From NCBI RefSeq assembly GCF_001642725.1, contig NZ_LSUQ01000021.1:1-43427 (forward strand): a stretch of DNA of 43,427 nt, read 5' to 3'. Position numbers and translations under genes: made by a program. The notes beneath the pieces were generated by a model. That model was not told the DNA's origin. It saw only the letters and a program-made list of their open reading frames with translations, and searched no databases. Source of the DNA: Ferroacidibacillus organovorans (GTDB lineage: Bacteria > Bacillota > Bacilli > Alicyclobacillales > SLC66). Positions 7,693 through 38,739 of the stretch are shown here, piece by piece (within the stretch, counting starts at the first letter, position 1; each line of letters starts with the position of its first letter).

Positions 7693-8139
7693 TCAAATTC
7701 TCTTGGCGGTGTAGAGCGCTCCAAAAAACACTGCAAGCACCGCAATGTACGCAAACGACATCCACATCGAGTAGACGTTTGCGCCGTGGGAGATGAGAAA
7801 CATCACGCCGTTGTATCCAGCAAAAAGCAAGATCAATAGTCCTGCGGTGTATGCGCTACGCCAAACCATGCCTTTCATGAAAAAAGCGCGCACGGCGCCG
7901 GCACACGTGATCAAAACAAGCAGAACACCAGTACCCGCGTGCGCCGCGAGAATTGGCGGACTGTGAGCGAGCGACCAGTTGAGCGTGACCCAAAGCCCAC
8001 TCCACGTGCGCGCAGGCGAGATCACAGCATACGGAATCGTCACATAGAGATTGGCGATAATCCCAAAAATGTACTGCAGGGTCAGCAAAAAGAGCACGAA
8101 CCACGTGAGCTTATTCAATCCACCCGTTTTTCCGCGCAT
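7693..8139 (-). CDS. Four-helix membrane protein of unknown function
   Basis: About 148 residues from ATG 8139 (GAGGGCGGG upstream; a GTG at 8169 would add ten residues). Four hydrophobic segments are clear: residues near 10-30, 52-80, 88-110 and 118-140 of the short form. Small loops carry His residues (AHSPPILAAHAGTG and LISHGANVY) that could face the same membrane side. I do not recognise the family. It follows the Met-rich exported protein by 19 bases on the same strand, so the two are probably cotranscribed and may work together at the membrane, for example in metal handling or electron transfer. That role is inference. Confidence 0.65.
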   Translation of the reverse strand: MRGKTGGLNKLTWFVLFLLTLQYIFGIIANLYVTIPYAVISPARTWSGLWVTLNWSLAHSPPILAAHAGTGVLLVLITCAGAVRAFFMKGMVWRSAYTAGLLILLFAGYNGVMFLISHGANVYSMWMSFAYIAVLAVFFGALYTAKRI

Positions 8140-24552: not shown

Positions 24553-26808
24553 ATGAAGTCAACCAAACAAGCCATGCTCTTTTCTGCATCCATGATCCTT
24601 GCACTCTCTCCAGTCTCACTCAGCCTCGCCGCAACACAAGCGAAACACACAACCATAAGCACAACCCTGTCGATTGCGCGCGCAAAGCAAATCGCCACCA
24701 ACCTCTTTCACATCCCGTCGTACTATGCGATGACGCAGGAAAACTACAACTCAGCGAGTCAAGGAAATCCGCCCAGTTATAATCTTATGTTTACATTTAC
24801 GACGCCCACCCAACAGCAGAATTCGATCAACGTTACTCTGAACGCACAAACGGGTGAGGTACTCAACTATAATCGCTATAATGGTCCCGAGTCTTTTGTG
24901 TTTCCCGTTCCAGAATCGCTCTCGGCTGCAACCCAAGCGGCGCAAGCGTGGGTTAAAAAGCTCTCCCCCACACACGCGGCGCAGCTCACTCTCGAACCAC
25001 TCGCCCCACAAACTGGTACGTCACTCACCCAAGGTGTGCAGTACACGTTTGATTTTGTCCGCATGGCAAACGGCGTACCTGCACCGTTTGACGGCTGCAC
25101 AGTCGTGATCGATCAGAACGGAAATCTAATCAACTATTCGAGTTCTTGGTTAAACCTCCCCTTCCCTTCGGGTAAACCTGCGCTTTCACTGACTCAGGCA
25201 AACGCGCGATACGCGGCTGGACTGCCTTTAACGCTTTCCTATCAACAGAATTGGCAAGGGCAGTCGACGCCCTCCACCGTTCTCGCGTATTCTTTAAATC
25301 CCGGCAGCTATCCGGAATTTTGGAACGCCGGGTATCTCACACAATCGAGTGGCATCGGCATCCCGGTAATTGACGCGCAGACCGGTCAAGTGATTGATGC
25401 AACAGGCAAGGTACATCCAATTCCAACTCAGGCACCCCTGAAACCGCTGGATCCACACGGTGGCCGCGCCGCATTTCTATGGAAGAAAGTCAACTGGACC
25501 GAGCAGCAGGCGCTGCAATTTGCCAAGTCAGCGCTCGGCGTGCCGACAAACTTCAGCCTGACTACATCAAGTCAGGGACAATCCTTCCCTCAGGGCGACA
25601 ACATGTGGAACTTTACGTGGACAAACCCGAAAAATGCCAATGACCAAATCAGCGCGCAAATCGACTCGACCTACGGTGTATTGCAAAGCGCCTACGGCGG
25701 TTCAACAAGCTACAACGGGAAAGATCAATACACTTCGGCGCAACTTTTCGCACGCGCCAAAGCGTTTCTCGCGCGCGTCTTTCCGAACGATCTCGGTTCG
25801 ATCGCTCTCAAGCCAATGACATTTAAAAAATATCCCGGCACCACGACGGATTATCAGATCCAGTTGATTGTAAACGGTCTACCTGACAGCGGAAGCAGCG
25901 GAAGCCTGACGATGAGTGGCGTGACGGGTCAAGTCGCAAACTACTACTCTCCCCTACAATCGTCGAATTCTGGCCCATTCAAATCACCGAAAGGCGCAAT
26001 CTCTCTGCAAGCTGCGCAACAGGCGTGGGTAAAGGCTGCTCCACTCAGTTTGATGTACCTCGAAACACAACCGAGTGGGTATGCACAAGGTACTACGACC
26101 GGACATGTGATTCTCGCGTATGCGCCTGTCGGAAGTCTTGTTTATGGCGGCATGGTCGACGCGTTCACAGGGCAGGTGTTAAACGGTCCGCAAACGCCCG
26201 GATATCGCGGCATCCCGAGCGATATCGTCGGTCTCCCGCAAACGCCAGAGCTTGAACTGCTCGTCAATGATGGCTTACTTTCGGTCGACGCGAATGGACA
26301 CGCGCAGCCGAATGCACTCATGACACGCGCAGCATTCGTAAAGCTGGTCGTCGGCGCCTTTAATCTTTCCCAAGGCGGCACACCGATGATGGCTGGACTC
26401 TCACACGGCATCCAAGCGTCACTCTCCGACGTCTCCTCTGCCAGCCCAGCGTTTAGCGCGATTGTCTCCGCCTACGAAATGGGGCTGCTCCCGCCGGGTC
26501 CGCTGTTTCAGCCTAACGCATTGGCAACGCGCGGATTCGCCGCCACATTACTTGCTCGCGCACTCGGCTACAATGCCCTGCTTGCACACCCGACACTCTT
26601 TCACTTCACGGCGAGCGACGCCGCGTCCATTCCGACGGATCATCTCGCGGCGGATGCGATCGCCACAACGCTTGGCATGTTCCAGTTGCAAAACGGAAGT
26701 TTCATGGACAGCACCCCGATCTCCATCAAAGATGCAGCAGTCGCCGTCGTCTACGGGGCCAACGCCCTCGCAAAAAACGGCCCCTCCCCTATCCGCTTTC
26801 AGGGCTGA
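24553..26808 (+). CDS. Exported YcdB/YcdC-repeat protein with C-terminal SLH-like region
   Basis: 751-residue exported protein. The signal peptide covers residues 1-27 (MLFSASMILALSPVSLSLAA). Several YcdB/YcdC-PepSY-like repeats follow, each with an SIxxAKQIATNLF/ALQFAKSALGVP-like helix and a strand ending in NAQTGEVLNY, DAQTGQVIDA or GVTGQVANYY. The last 190 residues look like S-layer homology motifs (PELELLVNDGLLSVDANG, PNALMTRAAFVKLVVGAF, AIVSAYEMGLLPPG), which would hold the protein on the cell wall. PepSY-like domains often inhibit or chaperone proteases. AAAGGAG lies nine bases before ATG 24553. It stands alone, with its own terminator. Confidence 0.8.
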   Translation: MKSTKQAMLFSASMILALSPVSLSLAATQAKHTTISTTLSIARAKQIATNLFHIPSYYAMTQENYNSASQGNPPSYNLMFTFTTPTQQQNSINVTLNAQTGEVLNYNRYNGPESFVFPVPESLSAATQAAQAWVKKLSPTHAAQLTLEPLAPQTGTSLTQGVQYTFDFVRMANGVPAPFDGCTVVIDQNGNLINYSSSWLNLPFPSGKPALSLTQANARYAAGLPLTLSYQQNWQGQSTPSTVLAYSLNPGSYPEFWNAGYLTQSSGIGIPVIDAQTGQVIDATGKVHPIPTQAPLKPLDPHGGRAAFLWKKVNWTEQQALQFAKSALGVPTNFSLTTSSQGQSFPQGDNMWNFTWTNPKNANDQISAQIDSTYGVLQSAYGGSTSYNGKDQYTSAQLFARAKAFLARVFPNDLGSIALKPMTFKKYPGTTTDYQIQLIVNGLPDSGSSGSLTMSGVTGQVANYYSPLQSSNSGPFKSPKGAISLQAAQQAWVKAAPLSLMYLETQPSGYAQGTTTGHVILAYAPVGSLVYGGMVDAFTGQVLNGPQTPGYRGIPSDIVGLPQTPELELLVNDGLLSVDANGHAQPNALMTRAAFVKLVVGAFNLSQGGTPMMAGLSHGIQASLSDVSSASPAFSAIVSAYEMGLLPPGPLFQPNALATRGFAATLLARALGYNALLAHPTLFHFTASDAASIPTDHLAADAIATTLGMFQLQNGSFMDSTPISIKDAAVAVVYGANALAKNGPSPIRFQG

Positions 26809-26961: not shown

Positions 26962-26990
26962 TTGCACTTTGGCAACCAAGCCGATATACT
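26962..26990 (+). promoter_or_regulatory. Candidate promoter of selC
   Basis: TTGCAC (26962-26967) and TATACT (26985-26990) are 17 bases apart; the tRNA begins 15 bases after the -10 element, as expected for a stable RNA gene. Confidence 0.6.
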
Positions 26991-27005
26991 AGAGCGAGTG
27001 TTCAT

Positions 27006-27102
27006 GGGGGTGGATGGGGTACTGGTGTCCTTCCCGGTCTTCAAAACCGAGTGGGCGGCACGGGTTGTCGCCGGTGGGTTCGATTCCCACACGCTCCCGC
27101 CA
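27006..27102 (+). tRNA. selC: tRNA-Sec (selenocysteine), anticodon TCA
   Basis: A 97-base gene with the features of bacterial tRNA-Sec. The anticodon loop is CTTCAAA with anticodon TCA (27041-27043), which reads UGA. There is a perfect T arm (GTGGG, TTCGATT, CCCAC, 27074-27090), a long variable arm (27051-27073, GGCGGCA pairing with TGTCGCC), a short D loop with GG (27022-27027) flanked by an extended D stem, and an encoded CCA (27100-27102) after discriminator G. The acceptor pairs 27006-27012 with 27092-27098, with a G-A juxtaposition at the eighth position. Ordinary tRNAs do not have this length and arm pattern with a TCA anticodon. It implies that the organism inserts selenocysteine; selA, selB, selD and any selenoprotein must lie outside this window. 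Confidence 0.92.
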
Positions 27103-27385
27103 AGGGTTTTCAGGCTTTCGCCGATGAATGTTCGTCGTAAAAGTGTCTCCGTGTAACAAGTCGTGTAACACGAAATCAACCTTATTTTCTGCGGCAGTGA
27201 TTCGATGTTCCCCGGCTTATGTTGACGGAAGACATAAGTTAGGTAGCCGATTATGTATTCTTGTCTCCGAATATCTATCCCCCAAAAACTTCTACGCTTG
27301 TCGTATGCACGATTTTGATTCCATTCACTGGTTCTTCGATACACTTTCTGCAGTTACGGGCAGAATAGCTGAAGAACAATATGAT

Positions 27386-27423
27386 AAATAAGACACTTCC
27401 GCACTAAAGGAAGTGTCTTATTT
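27386..27423 (+). terminator. Strong intrinsic terminator hairpin in the post-selC interval
   Basis: AAATAAGACACTTCC (27386-27400) and GGAAGTGTCTTATTT (27409-27423) form a perfect 15-bp stem with an 8-base loop and A/T flanks. It could end the selC transcript or mark the end of a lost gene. Confidence 0.75.
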
Positions 27424-27507
27424 CAAAATGCCCATTCCAATGTATGTTCATCTTTTAGGTCATTCAAATAAAGGAGTGACTCGCTTCAATCCCATATTAT
27501 TAATATA

Positions 27508-27535
27508 AATCTTTAAAGATTATAAGTCTAGACTT
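27508..27535. promoter_or_regulatory. Two adjacent perfect palindromes upstream of MFS gene (operator candidates)
   Basis: AATCTTTAAAGATT (27508-27521) and AAGTCTAGACTT (27524-27535) are perfect, spacer-free palindromes. The second covers the predicted -35 box of the MFS promoter, where a repressor would block transcription. Confidence 0.45.
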
Positions 27536-27557
27536 GATTTTTTATATGGGTTATGAT
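27529..27557 (+). promoter_or_regulatory. Candidate promoter of the MFS transporter gene
   Basis: TAGACT (27529-27534) and TATGAT (27552-27557) are separated by 17 bases, about 40 bases before the gene's ribosome binding site. Confidence 0.5.
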
Positions 27558-27593
27558 ACGGAAATTAATTCGGAAATCATGTAAGGGGCGAAT

Positions 27594-27683
27594 ATGAGCA
27601 ATGGTAAGCCTAAAGAGAGAAATATTTTCTCATCCTCAGTTCCGATGGTTCTTCTTAGGACGTACGGTTTCTTTGTTTGGTAG
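27594..27683 (+). CDS. Short overlapping ORF (29 codons) at the MFS start
   Basis: ATG 27594 is better placed behind AAGGGGCG (27582-27590) than the MFS start seven bases later, and its frame runs 29 codons into the MFS gene before TAG. It may be a regulatory upstream ORF or mere chance; the peptide (begins MSNGKPKERNIF) resembles nothing I know. Confidence 0.2.
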   Translation: MSNGKPKERNIFSSSVPMVLLRTYGFFVW

Positions 27684-28830
27684 TGCTATGACGCCCGTGG
27701 CTCTCGCATTCGCAGTTCTGCAAGCTCCGAAAGGACAGCAGTTGTTGGGATACATCCTTGCTGCTGAAATGATTCCCAATGTTTTGATGGTGCTGATCGG
27801 CGGAACGATTGGGGATCGTTATCGTCGAGATGTATTGTTACTTCTTAGTAATATAGGGTCTGGATTATCTCAGGCAGGCATTGCTGCCATCGTTGTTTTG
27901 GGCGCGAATCCGTATTTCATGTTCCCATTGGCAATCATAAACGGTGTATTGGGTGCATTTACTTCTCCGGCGATGCGCGGCATTGTTCCAGAAATAGTAG
28001 ACAGCAAAGATGATATTAAACAAGCGAATTCGCTACTCAATGTATCCCGGAATTCTGCCAAAATCGTCGGTCCAACGGTAGCAGGGATTTTGGTGGCAAC
28101 AGTCGGTGGCGGTTGGGGGATTGCAATTGATGCCGTCAGTTTTTTCGTTGCTGCGTTTTGTTTTAGTCAAGTCCGTATTCCGTCTCATCCTCCTATTACG
28201 CAAGCGACTATTATGCAAGACATGCGTGAAGGGTGGTCCTACTTCCGTCGTCATCGTTGGATTTGGTCGATTACTGCTGCATTTGCGTTGATGAATGCAA
28301 TTCAGATGGGAGTGTGGCAAGTTCTTGGACCCATTATTGCTAGGCATACCTTTGGGTCTGCTGGGTGGGGATTAACGCTTGGTATAAAATCGCTGGGTCT
28401 CTTAGTGGCTAGCTTGGCGATGCTAAAGTTCCAATTAAGGCGTCCGCTTCGCGAGTGCATGTTGGCAATTTCAGTAAGCGGTATACCTATGATTATGCTT
28501 GGTCAAGGGTATGCTTTGCCGTATCTCGTCGTTGGTGCTGCATTGGCTGGAGCGGGATCAGCTATATCAGGCGTAGCCTGGGACACCTCATTACAACAAG
28601 CTGTACCGAAAGACAAACTCTCACGCGTATGTGCCTTCGATGATTTTGGATCTTATATCGCTATACCTTTAGGAGAAATACTGGCAGTACCAATGTCGAG
28701 GATCTTTGGGTTTAAATCAGTTGCAACCGTCGGTGGAGTAATCTTTATTTTGGTTGCTCTTCTTCCCTTGATTATGCGTCAGGTGAGACAGATGACGCCA
28801 GAGTGCATTCAGTCCCTCAGCTCTGAGTAG
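27601..28830 (+). CDS. MFS transporter (MFS_3/EntS-like)
   Basis: 409-residue protein with 12 hydrophobic segments. FRWFFLGRTVSLFGSAMTPVAL and LIGGTIGDRYRRDVLLLLSN carry the first-helix pattern and the conserved cytoplasmic loop (GDRYRR), and SPAMRGIVPEIVDSKDDIKQANSLL is typical of the exporter branch that includes enterobactin exporter EntS and macrolide efflux proteins. The substrate is unknown. The start ATG is 10-12 bases from AAGGGG, slightly far, and an overlapping short ORF uses the same site. Codon use and base composition are more AT-rich than the genes before selC, suggesting acquisition. Two palindromes at the promoter suggest local repression. Confidence 0.85.
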   Translation: MVSLKREIFSHPQFRWFFLGRTVSLFGSAMTPVALAFAVLQAPKGQQLLGYILAAEMIPNVLMVLIGGTIGDRYRRDVLLLLSNIGSGLSQAGIAAIVVLGANPYFMFPLAIINGVLGAFTSPAMRGIVPEIVDSKDDIKQANSLLNVSRNSAKIVGPTVAGILVATVGGGWGIAIDAVSFFVAAFCFSQVRIPSHPPITQATIMQDMREGWSYFRRHRWIWSITAAFALMNAIQMGVWQVLGPIIARHTFGSAGWGLTLGIKSLGLLVASLAMLKFQLRRPLRECMLAISVSGIPMIMLGQGYALPYLVVGAALAGAGSAISGVAWDTSLQQAVPKDKLSRVCAFDDFGSYIAIPLGEILAVPMSRIFGFKSVATVGGVIFILVALLPLIMRQVRQMTPECIQSLSSE

Positions 28831-28842
28831 CGTGCTCCTGTC

Positions 28843-29097
28843 TTATTGCGCATAAGGGCGCGAACATGCAGTAGTCACCGTCAATTCGCTGGTGTATGAT
28901 TCAGACACGCTTAATAGCACTTCCTTTCCTGTATACGTTTCGCAAACGATTTTTACAATTCCGTCCATTTGGGTTGCCACGCCATGCAAAGCAGGCGCGA
29001 CATCTGAACCATGCGCAAAAAGCAGGGCATCAGAAAAAAGCGCCGAGATGATGCTCATGCCACATGAGAAAAATGTTGCGCCAGGCAAAGCTTCCAT
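28843..29097 (-). CDS. Small hypothetical protein, coupled to APH-like gene
   Basis: 84 residues from ATG 29097, whose A is shared with the stop TGA of the upstream APH-like gene (TGATG), so coupling is likely. I do not recognise the family. The protein is soluble-looking, with Cys at positions about 12, 56 and 78 and a C-terminal half alternating beta-strand-like residues (IVKIVCETYTGKEVLLSVSE). It ends 12 bases from the convergent MFS gene. It could be a true small protein or the leftover of a larger gene. Confidence 0.4.
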   Translation of the reverse strand: MEALPGATFFSCGMSIISALFSDALLFAHGSDVAPALHGVATQMDGIVKIVCETYTGKEVLLSVSESYTSELTVTTACSRPYAQ

Positions 29098-34738: not shown

Positions 34739-34763
34739 TGATACGCATTCTCATCATGAGAAT
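34739..34763. promoter_or_regulatory. Metalloregulator-type operator (Fur-box-like) before the uptake operon
   Basis: ATTCTCATCATGAGAAT (34747-34763) is a perfect 8-1-8 palindrome. Overlapping it, TGATACGCATTCTCA (34739-34753) matches the Fur heptamer pattern TGATAAT-N-ATTATCA at 11 of 14 positions. It lies at the 3' end of the LysR gene, about 130 bases upstream of the binding-protein start. Which regulator binds is unknown. Confidence 0.4.
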
Positions 34764-35665
34764 CATTCATGGATTGCTCGACTTGATGATATGTTTTCAG
34801 TGATAAACTGGATAAAAAGGTCTGTCGCCCGCGTTCGAAATCTGGAATTCGGCAATACATAATACAATTCTCTGATCACGGGAGAATTTTTTAGAGTAAA
34901 CGATTTTAAAAAGTCGTATTGAAGTTCTTTACGAATGGCCCATTTGGAAATCAAGGAAACGCCAAGTCCCGCTTCCACCGCTTCTTTGATCACTTGCGAA
35001 CTCCCAAACTCCATCGTGGAGCGAGGCATGAATCCCTGTGTTTCAAACAATCGATCCGTGACATCGCGCGTACCCGACCCTCGCTCACGCAGAATCCATG
35101 TCTCATTTCGCAAGTCATACAACTCGATTTCTTGCTTATCCATGATGGGGTGTGCAGGTGAAACAATACCGACCATTTCATCCTTCGCAAAGGATCGCGT
35201 GATCAAACCTGATGTATCAAATGATCCTTCAATGATTCCTATGTCCAATTCGTGGCGAAGCACTTGATCGACAATCCGACGTGAATTTTTAATTGTAATC
35301 TTAGGGATGATGTCAGAATAACGCGTGATGAAATCCTGAATCATCTTCGGCAAGAGATATTCTCCAAACGTATATCCCGAGCCAATTGAAAGTTCGCCCT
35401 TTGCTGTATGTGTCAAATCATCCATTAATCTTTTGATCAACTCATATTGAACAACGATTGTTTTTGCTTGCGTGTATAAAATTTCACCCGCTTTTGTGAG
35501 TCGAACATATCTGTTCGATCGCTCAAACAGTAAAACACCATACTTTTTTTCAAGAACTTGAATCTCACGGCTGACGGCGGATTGGGTCAAATGCAACTCT
35601 GCCGCTGCTTTGGTAAAACTATTTTTTTCAGCGATCATAATAAATGTGCGCAGCAGATCGTCCAT
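34763..35665 (-). CDS. LysR-family transcriptional regulator
   Basis: 300 residues: an N-terminal winged helix-turn-helix (FTKAAAELHLTQSAVSREIQVLEKKYGVLLFER, residues about 17-49) and a C-terminal effector-binding domain beginning near residue 88 (GELSIGSGYTFGEYLLP). It is of the CysL/CbbR-like branch by its general pattern; the effector is unknown. AAGGAGG lies five bases before ATG 35665. It lies directly upstream of the ABC uptake operon on the same strand, so it may control that operon, although LysR regulators are usually divergent from their targets. Composition is AT-rich, as for the uptake genes. Confidence 0.9.
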   Translation of the reverse strand: MDDLLRTFIMIAEKNSFTKAAAELHLTQSAVSREIQVLEKKYGVLLFERSNRYVRLTKAGEILYTQAKTIVVQYELIKRLMDDLTHTAKGELSIGSGYTFGEYLLPKMIQDFITRYSDIIPKITIKNSRRIVDQVLRHELDIGIIEGSFDTSGLITRSFAKDEMVGIVSPAHPIMDKQEIELYDLRNETWILRERGSGTRDVTDRLFETQGFMPRSTMEFGSSQVIKEAVEAGLGVSLISKWAIRKELQYDFLKSFTLKNSPVIRELYYVLPNSRFRTRATDLFIQFITENISSSRAIHE

Positions 35666-38318: not shown

Positions 38319-38630
38319 CTACTCCACGTCGCCAGACCAGCCGAGCATTCCGCCGGACAGGTTTTTCACATGCTGAAACCCATTTTCCAAGAGAATTTCA
38401 CACGCGCGCGTGCTACGTCCGCCACTGCGGCAGATGATCACCGCTTCTTTATCAGCGTCGATCTCCTTAAGACGATCAGGCAATTCCCCCAGGGGGATGT
38501 TGATCGCGCCTGAAATCATTCCTTCTGCGACTTCACCTGGCTCTCGAACATCGATCAGCACCACCTTTTCCCCTGCTTTGAGCCGACGGTCGAGATCAGA
38601 CGACGTCATATTGACAACTTGTGTGCCCAC
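38319..38630 (-). CDS. Single-domain rhodanese (sulfurtransferase)
   Basis: About 103 residues with the rhodanese fold: VVLIDVREPGEVAEGMISGAINIPLGEL, then VIICRSGGRSTRACEILLENGF with the catalytic Cys in CRSGGRS (persulfide loop), and NLSGGMLGW at the end. It moves sulfane sulfur between donors and thiol acceptors. GTG 38630 has AAGGAGG nine bases upstream; the longer frame to 38720 has no such site. The gene is divergent from a DUF4395 membrane protein, which in other Bacillota is often found with sulfur-handling proteins. Confidence 0.88.
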   Translation of the reverse strand: MGTQVVNMTSSDLDRRLKAGEKVVLIDVREPGEVAEGMISGAINIPLGELPDRLKEIDADKEAVIICRSGGRSTRACEILLENGFQHVKNLSGGMLGWSGDVE

Positions 38631-38739
38631 TACATATCTCCTCCTTGTTGCGCAATCCTGAAGATCCGCTTCTGCTTGCCATGGTACCACGTTCAATCTG
38701 CCAGCGTCATCCAAGAACAACCTCGTTTCAAACTTCCAC

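What the first reader, a model, noticed from the sequence alone, without database searches (positions are those of the whole stretch)
26962..27102. Selenocysteine tRNA gene (selC) with its own promoter
A 97-base element has the TCA anticodon, long variable arm, extended D stem, perfect T arm and encoded CCA of bacterial tRNA-Sec, preceded by a well-spaced promoter. It shows that this organism can decode UGA as selenocysteine, an uncommon trait in aerobic Bacillota. No in-frame UGA selenoprotein is evident in this window, so the users and selA/selB/selD lie elsewhere.
Basis: partly seen in the sequence, partly recalled or inferred. Interest (0 to 1): 0.75.

Follow-up and report, generated by a model that had tools for sequence, protein, structure and literature searches.

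The report
Selenocysteine tRNA gene, Bacilli type
This is a real and probably working gene for the tRNA that inserts selenocysteine, in a bacterium that also carries the rest of the selenocysteine machinery; it is ordinary, except that its class of bacteria mostly builds this tRNA with two small bulges that most sampled tRNAs from other classes of the phylum lack.

Summary
Window 27006-27102 (+) is a 97-nt tRNA-Sec gene: ARAGORN calls it and it is the only Rfam hit in the window (RF01852, 63.3 bits, cut-off 47). So a likely user exists. Both formate dehydrogenases over the family cut-off have Cys, not UGA. MnmH is also present.

Corrections: the "extended D stem" is six pairs interrupted by a bulged base, the anticodon stem is bulged too, and acceptor pair 8 is G.A. 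The trait is not rare: at least 81 of 398 sampled genomes of the class have it.

The modest new point is comparative: both bulges are strictly present together in 62 of 79 distinct tRNAs from this class and in 2 of 107 sampled elsewhere in the phylum, with covariation support. Similar bulges are in print for other lineages (PMC5330540). Ordinary gene; low to moderate interest.

The parts
27006..27102 (+). selC, tRNA-Sec gene (97 nt, encoded CCA)
   Evidence: ARAGORN; Rfam RF01852 63.3 bits
26961..26990 (+). probable promoter, TTTGCA (or TTGCAC) then TATACT
   Evidence: scan (weak); 47/49 identity just upstream of the tRNA with same-genus G001
27006..27012 (+). acceptor stem 5' strand, nt 1-7, pairing with 27092-27098
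   Evidence: 7 pairs, each 17/17 paired in 17 distinct sequences, varying at pairs 2, 4, 5 and 6
27013..27013 (+). nt 8, G opposite A at 27091: unpaired eighth position
   Evidence: 0/17 paired in close relatives; 16/79 paired in the class set
27016..27032 (+). D arm: 6 pairs, 4-nt loop, bulged base at 27020 (nt 15)
   Evidence: four outer pairs, bulged register 298/308 cells paired against 261/308 unbulged, 77 distinct sequences
27034..27051 (+). anticodon arm, nt 29-46, bulged base at 27050 (nt 45)
   Evidence: pair 29:46 in 72/77 against 29:45 in 3/77
27041..27043 (+). anticodon TCA
   Evidence: ARAGORN (anticodon at position 36)
27054..27072 (+). long variable arm, 7-bp stem
   Evidence: all 7 pairs 17/17, each with changes on both sides
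27074..27090 (+). T arm, 5-bp stem, 7-nt loop
   Evidence: 5 pairs 17/17; changes on both sides at 2 of the 5
27099..27102 (+). discriminator G and CCA

Best explanation
The element is selC, the gene for tRNA-Sec, of a member of the class Bacilli, probably near Sulfoacidibacillus (NCBI family Alicyclobacillaceae). It is probably transcribed on its own. The tRNA should be charged with serine by SerRS, converted to Sec-tRNA by SelA with selenophosphate from SelD, and delivered by SelB to UGA codons followed by a SECIS hairpin. At least one candidate codon exists in this genome: the N-terminal UGA of selD. The gene, its structure, the machinery genes and the UGA are shown by sequence. Transcription, charging and decoding are inferred from the known bacterial pathway.
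For: tRNA calls (1, 3, 5). selA C34:7351-8721, 567 bits; selD C34:8759-9679, 388 bits, one in-frame TGA; selB C4:80523-82391, 372 bits, 638 aa, covering 2-577 of the 581-position model. selD reads LTDKSG-UGA-GCKIGPADL in frame; reading the UGA through gives 394 bits to SelD. All 23 selD matches in the 18 family genomes contain one TGA; they lie in 17 of the 18. I read the UGA context in 22 of the 23; in 21 of these the four pairs GGUC/GACC can form at the same distance, one of them with a G.U pair, and in L086 only three of four. Hairpin GGUCC-GGC-GGACC in the own gene. Over the 18 loci in the codon test, GGT is 18/18 and GAC 18/18; mean majority-codon share 0.74 within 12 codons after the UGA (7 columns) against 0.52 beyond codon 20 (94 columns), one-sided p 0.018. 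The same tRNA shape in 14 of 18 family genomes, with covarying stems. Placement: same-family G017 has the same tRNA as Sulfoacidibacillus thermotolerans L055.
Against: selC is not linked to selA or selB. The minimum-energy fold of the single sequence is not the cloverleaf. The Rfam score is below that of the best Bacillota tRNAs (up to 83.9 bits), probably because of the two bulges (inference; G8.A is also common in the high scorers). No expression data. The SECIS evidence is modest: fold z -1.7 and -1.4 for two cuts, 13 and 18 of 200 shuffles at least as stable; p 0.018 with related sequences; in the codon test the Leu codon of the hairpin region is not frozen, and L086, left out of that test, has other codons there. 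SelD is the only selenoprotein for which I have evidence; no full selenoproteome scan was made. 4 of 18 family genomes gave no tRNA-Sec: two are 60-65% complete, one 88%, but G012 is 98% complete and still has two selD genes with a TGA.
Confidence: 0.97

Rival explanations
1. A tRNA-Sec-like tRNA with another identity (selC-type tRNA-Cys or allo-tRNA) that only looks like tRNA-Sec.
For: Such tRNAs exist and share the long arms; some selC-type tRNA-Cys have a UCA anticodon (PMC7609411, passages).
Against: The discriminator is G, not the U of selC-type tRNA-Cys (identity element from PMC7609411). The genome has selA, selB and a UGA-containing selD, and no second tRNA-Sec candidate over the cut-off.
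Confidence: 0.02
2. A decaying or non-functional selC, the mismatches being damage.
For: Mismatch at acceptor position 8, a bulge in each of two stems, Rfam score of 63 bits.
Against: The same departures are present in 17 of 17 distinct close relatives while the variable stem and several acceptor pairs covary. Most of the class shows the same bulges. The machinery genes are open frames.
Confidence: 0.01

Closest known systems
Bacterial tRNA-Sec (selC), Rfam RF01852
   Same: UCA anticodon, long variable arm, 5-bp T stem, 6-pair D stem with 4-nt loop, G discriminator, CCA
   Different: Base 8 unpaired (G.A), one bulged base in the D stem and one in the anticodon stem
12-bp acceptor-plus-T-stem tRNA-Sec class of Santesmasses et al. 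2017 (PMC5330540; section 10 read, passages)
   Same: Seven acceptor pairs, a bulge in the anticodon stem (their 43a, in most of that class) and in the D stem (their 13a, described there as specific to Clostridiales). That my nt 45 and nt 15 are their 43a and 13a is my mapping from the text; figures not seen
   Different: Here eight bases, not seven, lie between T stem and discriminator, so the helix is 7 pairs, one mismatch, 5 pairs; and the lineage is Bacilli, a word with 0 occurrences in that paper's main text
tRNA-Sec of other classes of Bacillota, sampled here
   Same: Position 8 unpaired is common there too: 93 of 107
   Different: 75 of 107 classified have neither bulge; 2 of 107 have both

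Membership tests
tRNA-Sec (RF01852) | Covariance-model score over the curated cut-off | tested here: met
   63.3 against 47 bits
tRNA-Sec (RF01852) | UCA anticodon in a 7-nt loop | tested here: met
   ARAGORN, 27041-27043
tRNA-Sec (RF01852) | Long variable arm and G73 (serine identity) | tested here: met
   7-bp variable stem, G discriminator
tRNA-Sec (RF01852) | 13-bp acceptor plus T helix (bacterial 8/5) | tested here: not met
   7 pairs, G.A mismatch, 5 pairs; the eighth is paired in 16 of 79 distinct Bacilli sequences. Not treated as excluding, because 12-bp forms are accepted as tRNA-Sec in PMC5330540
tRNA-Sec (RF01852) | 6-bp D stem with 4-nt loop | tested here: met
   Six pairs with a 4-nt loop, but one bulged base inside
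tRNA-Sec (RF01852) | selA, selB, selD in the genome | tested here: met
tRNA-Sec (RF01852) | A gene with an in-frame UGA and a SECIS-like hairpin | tested here: met
   selD; the hairpin evidence is modest
tRNA-Sec (RF01852) | Seleno-charging and UGA decoding in the cell | not testable with these tools
   needs biochemistry

The most novel reading that the evidence does not exclude
Bacilli share a derived tRNA-Sec architecture in which a bulge in the D stem and a bulge in the anticodon stem arose together and are kept as a pair, which predicts a co-adapted tRNA-binding surface on Bacilli SelA (and possibly SelB) and reduced exchange with canonical partners.
Probability: 0.35. Interest if true: 0.5.

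Novelty: new member of a known kind. Interest (0 to 1): 0.25.

Why it matters
It shows that the organism very probably decodes UGA as selenocysteine and names a likely user, selD. More broadly, 189 distinct tRNA sequences show a class-level split in tRNA-Sec shape within Bacillota, which gives natural pairs of tRNA and SelA for testing what SelA and SelB really require. It may also mean that models built on canonical tRNAs under-score the Bacilli form.

Tried and rejected
Minimum-energy folding as proof of the cloverleaf: uninformative. An unbulged D stem with a mismatch at nt 15: it fits the close relatives as well as the bulged form, but the class-wide set favours the bulge. The idea that the conserved departures are special to this family: rejected, since an unpaired position 8 is common across the phylum and the bulges across the class. 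Formate dehydrogenase as the user in this genome: rejected for the two matches over the cut-off. A selenoprotein in the window, for instance the rhodanese at 38319-38720 or the frame at 7693: no Sec motif seen by eye (the translation was in the wrong frame and shows nothing useful). Viral contigs for the neighbouring protein 24553-26805 and for SelA: no relatives by tblastn. A genome-wide SECIS model: considered, not built, because so short a hairpin holds too little information for 3 Mb. Two scripts meant to read the four selD loci still missing failed to do so (last part; one search printed nothing); one search read three of them, and L079 was not read.

Rows dropped: in the family scan, the second hit of G011 and the only hit of G012 are tRNA-Ser by ARAGORN, so 14 and not 15 of 18. 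In the class scan there were 83 matches in 82 genomes; L181 (G042) gave no ARAGORN tRNA-Sec and I judge it a tRNA-Ser-like false hit from its sequence, hence 81 of 398. That scan used stricter filters and missed at least G014, which one search finds, so 81 is a lower bound. In the phylum set, 120 loci were taken; L239, L254 and L299 gave no ARAGORN tRNA-Sec; the rest are 109 distinct sequences, of which two were not classified and 23 were outside the frame used. The Planctomycetota sequence L047 was kept apart. The phylum scan matched 289 genomes, tRNA-Ser hits probably included at E 1e-8; my loci are the 30 best-scoring, 60 of the next listed rows and 30 genomes with weaker best scores, not a random draw. 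The codon test used 18 of 23 selD loci (5 did not fit my search pattern). The paper that I took to be the original report of novel tRNA cloverleaf structures was not held; its contents are not claimed.

Full report
What is there. ARAGORN finds one tRNA in the window, tRNA-SeC with anticodon TCA at 27006-27102 on the + strand. Rfam RF01852 matches the same place with 63.3 bits, over its cut-off of 47, and is the only Rfam family found in the window. In the genome (3.03 Mb, 98 contigs, 96.8% complete) it is the only one of 22 matches over the cut-off.

Whose is it? NCBI places Sulfoacidibacillus and Tumebacillus in Alicyclobacillaceae, class Bacilli. I therefore write 'Bacilli' for the class; this is an inference.

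Is the machinery there? Yes. selA is at C34:7351-8721 (567 bits), selD follows it at C34:8759-9679 (388 bits, one in-frame TGA), and selB is at C4:80523-82391 (372 bits) (confirmed by NCBIfam). selC stands apart from these genes. The tRNA 2-selenouridine synthase MnmH is present as well (304.6 bits), so SelD may serve two selenium traits.

Who uses the tRNA? Most likely selD itself. Its frame reads LTDKSG, UGA, GCKIGPADL. All 23 selD matches in the 18 family genomes have exactly one TGA inside. I read the UGA context in 22 of 23 (L079 not): in 21 the four pairs GGUC/GACC can form at the same distance from the UGA, one of them with a G.U pair; in L086 three of four can. In the own gene the predicted hairpin is GGUCC-GGC-GGACC; two cuts fold with z -1.7 and -1.4. 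Over 18 of the 23 loci the Gly and Asp codons in the hairpin are invariant (GGT 18/18, GAC 18/18), although in three of the four other conserved Asp columns that were printed GAT is the major codon; the Leu codon next to them is not frozen. Mean majority-codon share is 0.74 within 12 codons after the UGA and 0.52 beyond codon 20 (7 against 94 columns, one-sided p 0.018). This fits a bacterial SECIS, but the test is small and the sequences are related. Both formate dehydrogenases over the family cut-off have no stop inside and read NCSRYCQ where relatives G004, G005, G007 and G016 have NRT-UGA-HAP (lined up by eye). Other selenoproteins were not searched for exhaustively. In the window, of 43 frames with a TGA between two open stretches of 60 codons or more, none looked like a Sec site by eye.

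Promoter. The scan finds TTTGCA-18-TATACT ending at 26990, 15 nt before the tRNA, but 4 sites of that quality were found in the region against a shuffle mean of 1.6. Conservation is better evidence: against the same-genus genome G001 the 49 nt before the tRNA match at 47, the 21 before those at 16, and the 101 before the 49 at 65 (ungapped); the 10.3-kb alignment is 84% identical. No terminator-like site was found.

Structure. Seventeen distinct tRNAs from this family and from named relatives (Alicyclobacillus, Tumebacillus, Sulfoacidibacillus, Bacillota MAGs) agree: seven acceptor pairs in 17/17, position 8 never paired (G.A 14, G.G 3), variable stem 17/17 with changes on both sides in all seven pairs, T stem 17/17 with such changes in two of five. 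Of the 31 full sequences behind this and L047, 17 (L047 included) were found by an exact 28-base pattern covering the D loop to the anticodon stem, so conservation there is partly by construction; the 14 family sequences were found by the Rfam model and are free of that.

Class and phylum. The Rfam scan of 398 genomes of the class matched 82. I examined all 83 matches: 82 are tRNA-Sec by ARAGORN and one is not, leaving 81 of 398 genomes, a lower bound because of stricter filters. With the family and named loci added these give 79 distinct sequences. In 77 of the 79, which share one frame, the four outer D-stem pairs are made with base 15 bulged in 298 of 308 cells (500 shuffles: mean 261.2, sd 3.0, none reaches it), against 261 of 308 without a bulge (492 of 500 shuffles reach it). 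The fifth anticodon-stem pair forms with base 45 bulged in 72 of 77 (no shuffle reaches it) and without in 3 of 77. In tRNAs from other classes of the phylum the reverse holds: of 109 distinct sequences, the 86 with the shorter frame pair contiguously in 338 of 344 cells and in 161 of 344 if bulged; the fifth anticodon-stem pair can form contiguously in 77 and with a bulge in 9 of 86. The other 23 of the 109 were not in that test; some have a D-stem bulge of another kind. Counted per sequence, both bulges are strictly present in 62 of 79 from the class and 2 of 107 from elsewhere; neither in 1 of 79 and 75 of 107. Of the other 16 of the class, 10 are ties in one stem, 4 have the D bulge but no standard fifth anticodon-stem pair, and 2 have one bulge only. 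The shuffles do not correct for relatedness, and I chose the sample from other classes from listed rows, so the size of the contrast is rough; its direction is clear. The unpaired position 8 is not linked to the bulges: 63 of 79 in the class and 93 of 107 elsewhere.

What is known. PMC5330540 (section 10 and passages) describes tRNA-Sec with a 12-bp acceptor-plus-T helix, a bulge in the anticodon stem in most of them and a D-stem bulge specific to Clostridiales; its main text has no occurrence of Bacilli or Firmicutes. PMC7609411 (passages) reviews non-canonical tRNA-Sec and relatives with other identities. In my searches I saw no title or abstract start about this combination in Bacilli; of the papers listed I opened only those named here and PMC4607533 and PMC8124441 (term searches, nothing on bulges), and most subscription papers are not held. 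PMC5029168 (passages) lists FdhA (822 organisms) and SelD (383) first among bacterial selenoproteins, so a UGA-selD is ordinary. PMC1794560 (passages) already lists three selenoproteins in Bacillales.

Mechanism. Shown: gene, structure, machinery genes, UGA-selD with hairpin. Inferred from the established bacterial pathway: SerRS charges the tRNA with Ser, SelA converts it using SelD's selenophosphate, SelB delivers it to the UGA. That SelA contacts the D arm is recalled and not from a call; if so, the Bacilli bulge should be matched by a change in SelA, which I did not test.

Verdict. A confirmed, ordinary selC. The class-wide double bulge is the part worth a specialist's glance.

Noticed in passing
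L056 and L060 (Tumebacillus flagellatus contig NZ_JMIR01000029.1); L051 for the full copy: Besides a full selC this genome has two partial selC copies on one contig, one with altered acceptor ends and one holding only the 5' half, each on a fetched stretch that also carries a phage-integrase family gene (PF00589). It suggests that selC is an integration site in Tumebacillus.
   Followed up: partly
window 27368-28855: Just downstream of selC, a lower-GC stretch with an MFS transporter gene (27601-28830) does not align with the same-genus genome G001, which holds about 2.2 kb of other DNA there.
   Followed up: partly
window 34763-35665 (-): A LysR-type regulator whose best NCBIfam hit is the selenium metabolism-associated LysR family, 217 bits, below its cut-off of 250.
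   Followed up: no
window 38319-38720 (-): A small rhodanese-domain protein (PF00581) with weak hits, below the cut-offs, to selenium-related rhodanese families among others.
   Followed up: no
L078, L080-L086: Six of the 18 family genomes (G009, G010, G011, G012, G016, G017) have two selD matches, each with an in-frame TGA (the second of G009 is partial). Besides the main form there are two other N-termini, SPGAG-UGA-ACK and CAG-UGA-AAK.
   Followed up: partly
L097, L098, L103, L104: Formate dehydrogenase alpha subunits with in-frame UGA occur in family genomes G004, G005, G007 and G016; the other matches of that scan have no stop inside.
   Followed up: partly
L047 (Planctomycetota MAG JAHBXY010000011.1): A tRNA-Sec that shares an exact 28-base stretch from D loop to anticodon stem with this family, yet ARAGORN draws it with unbulged stems.
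   Followed up: no
G187 (L155, L170): One genome of the class has two different tRNA-Sec genes.
   Followed up: no
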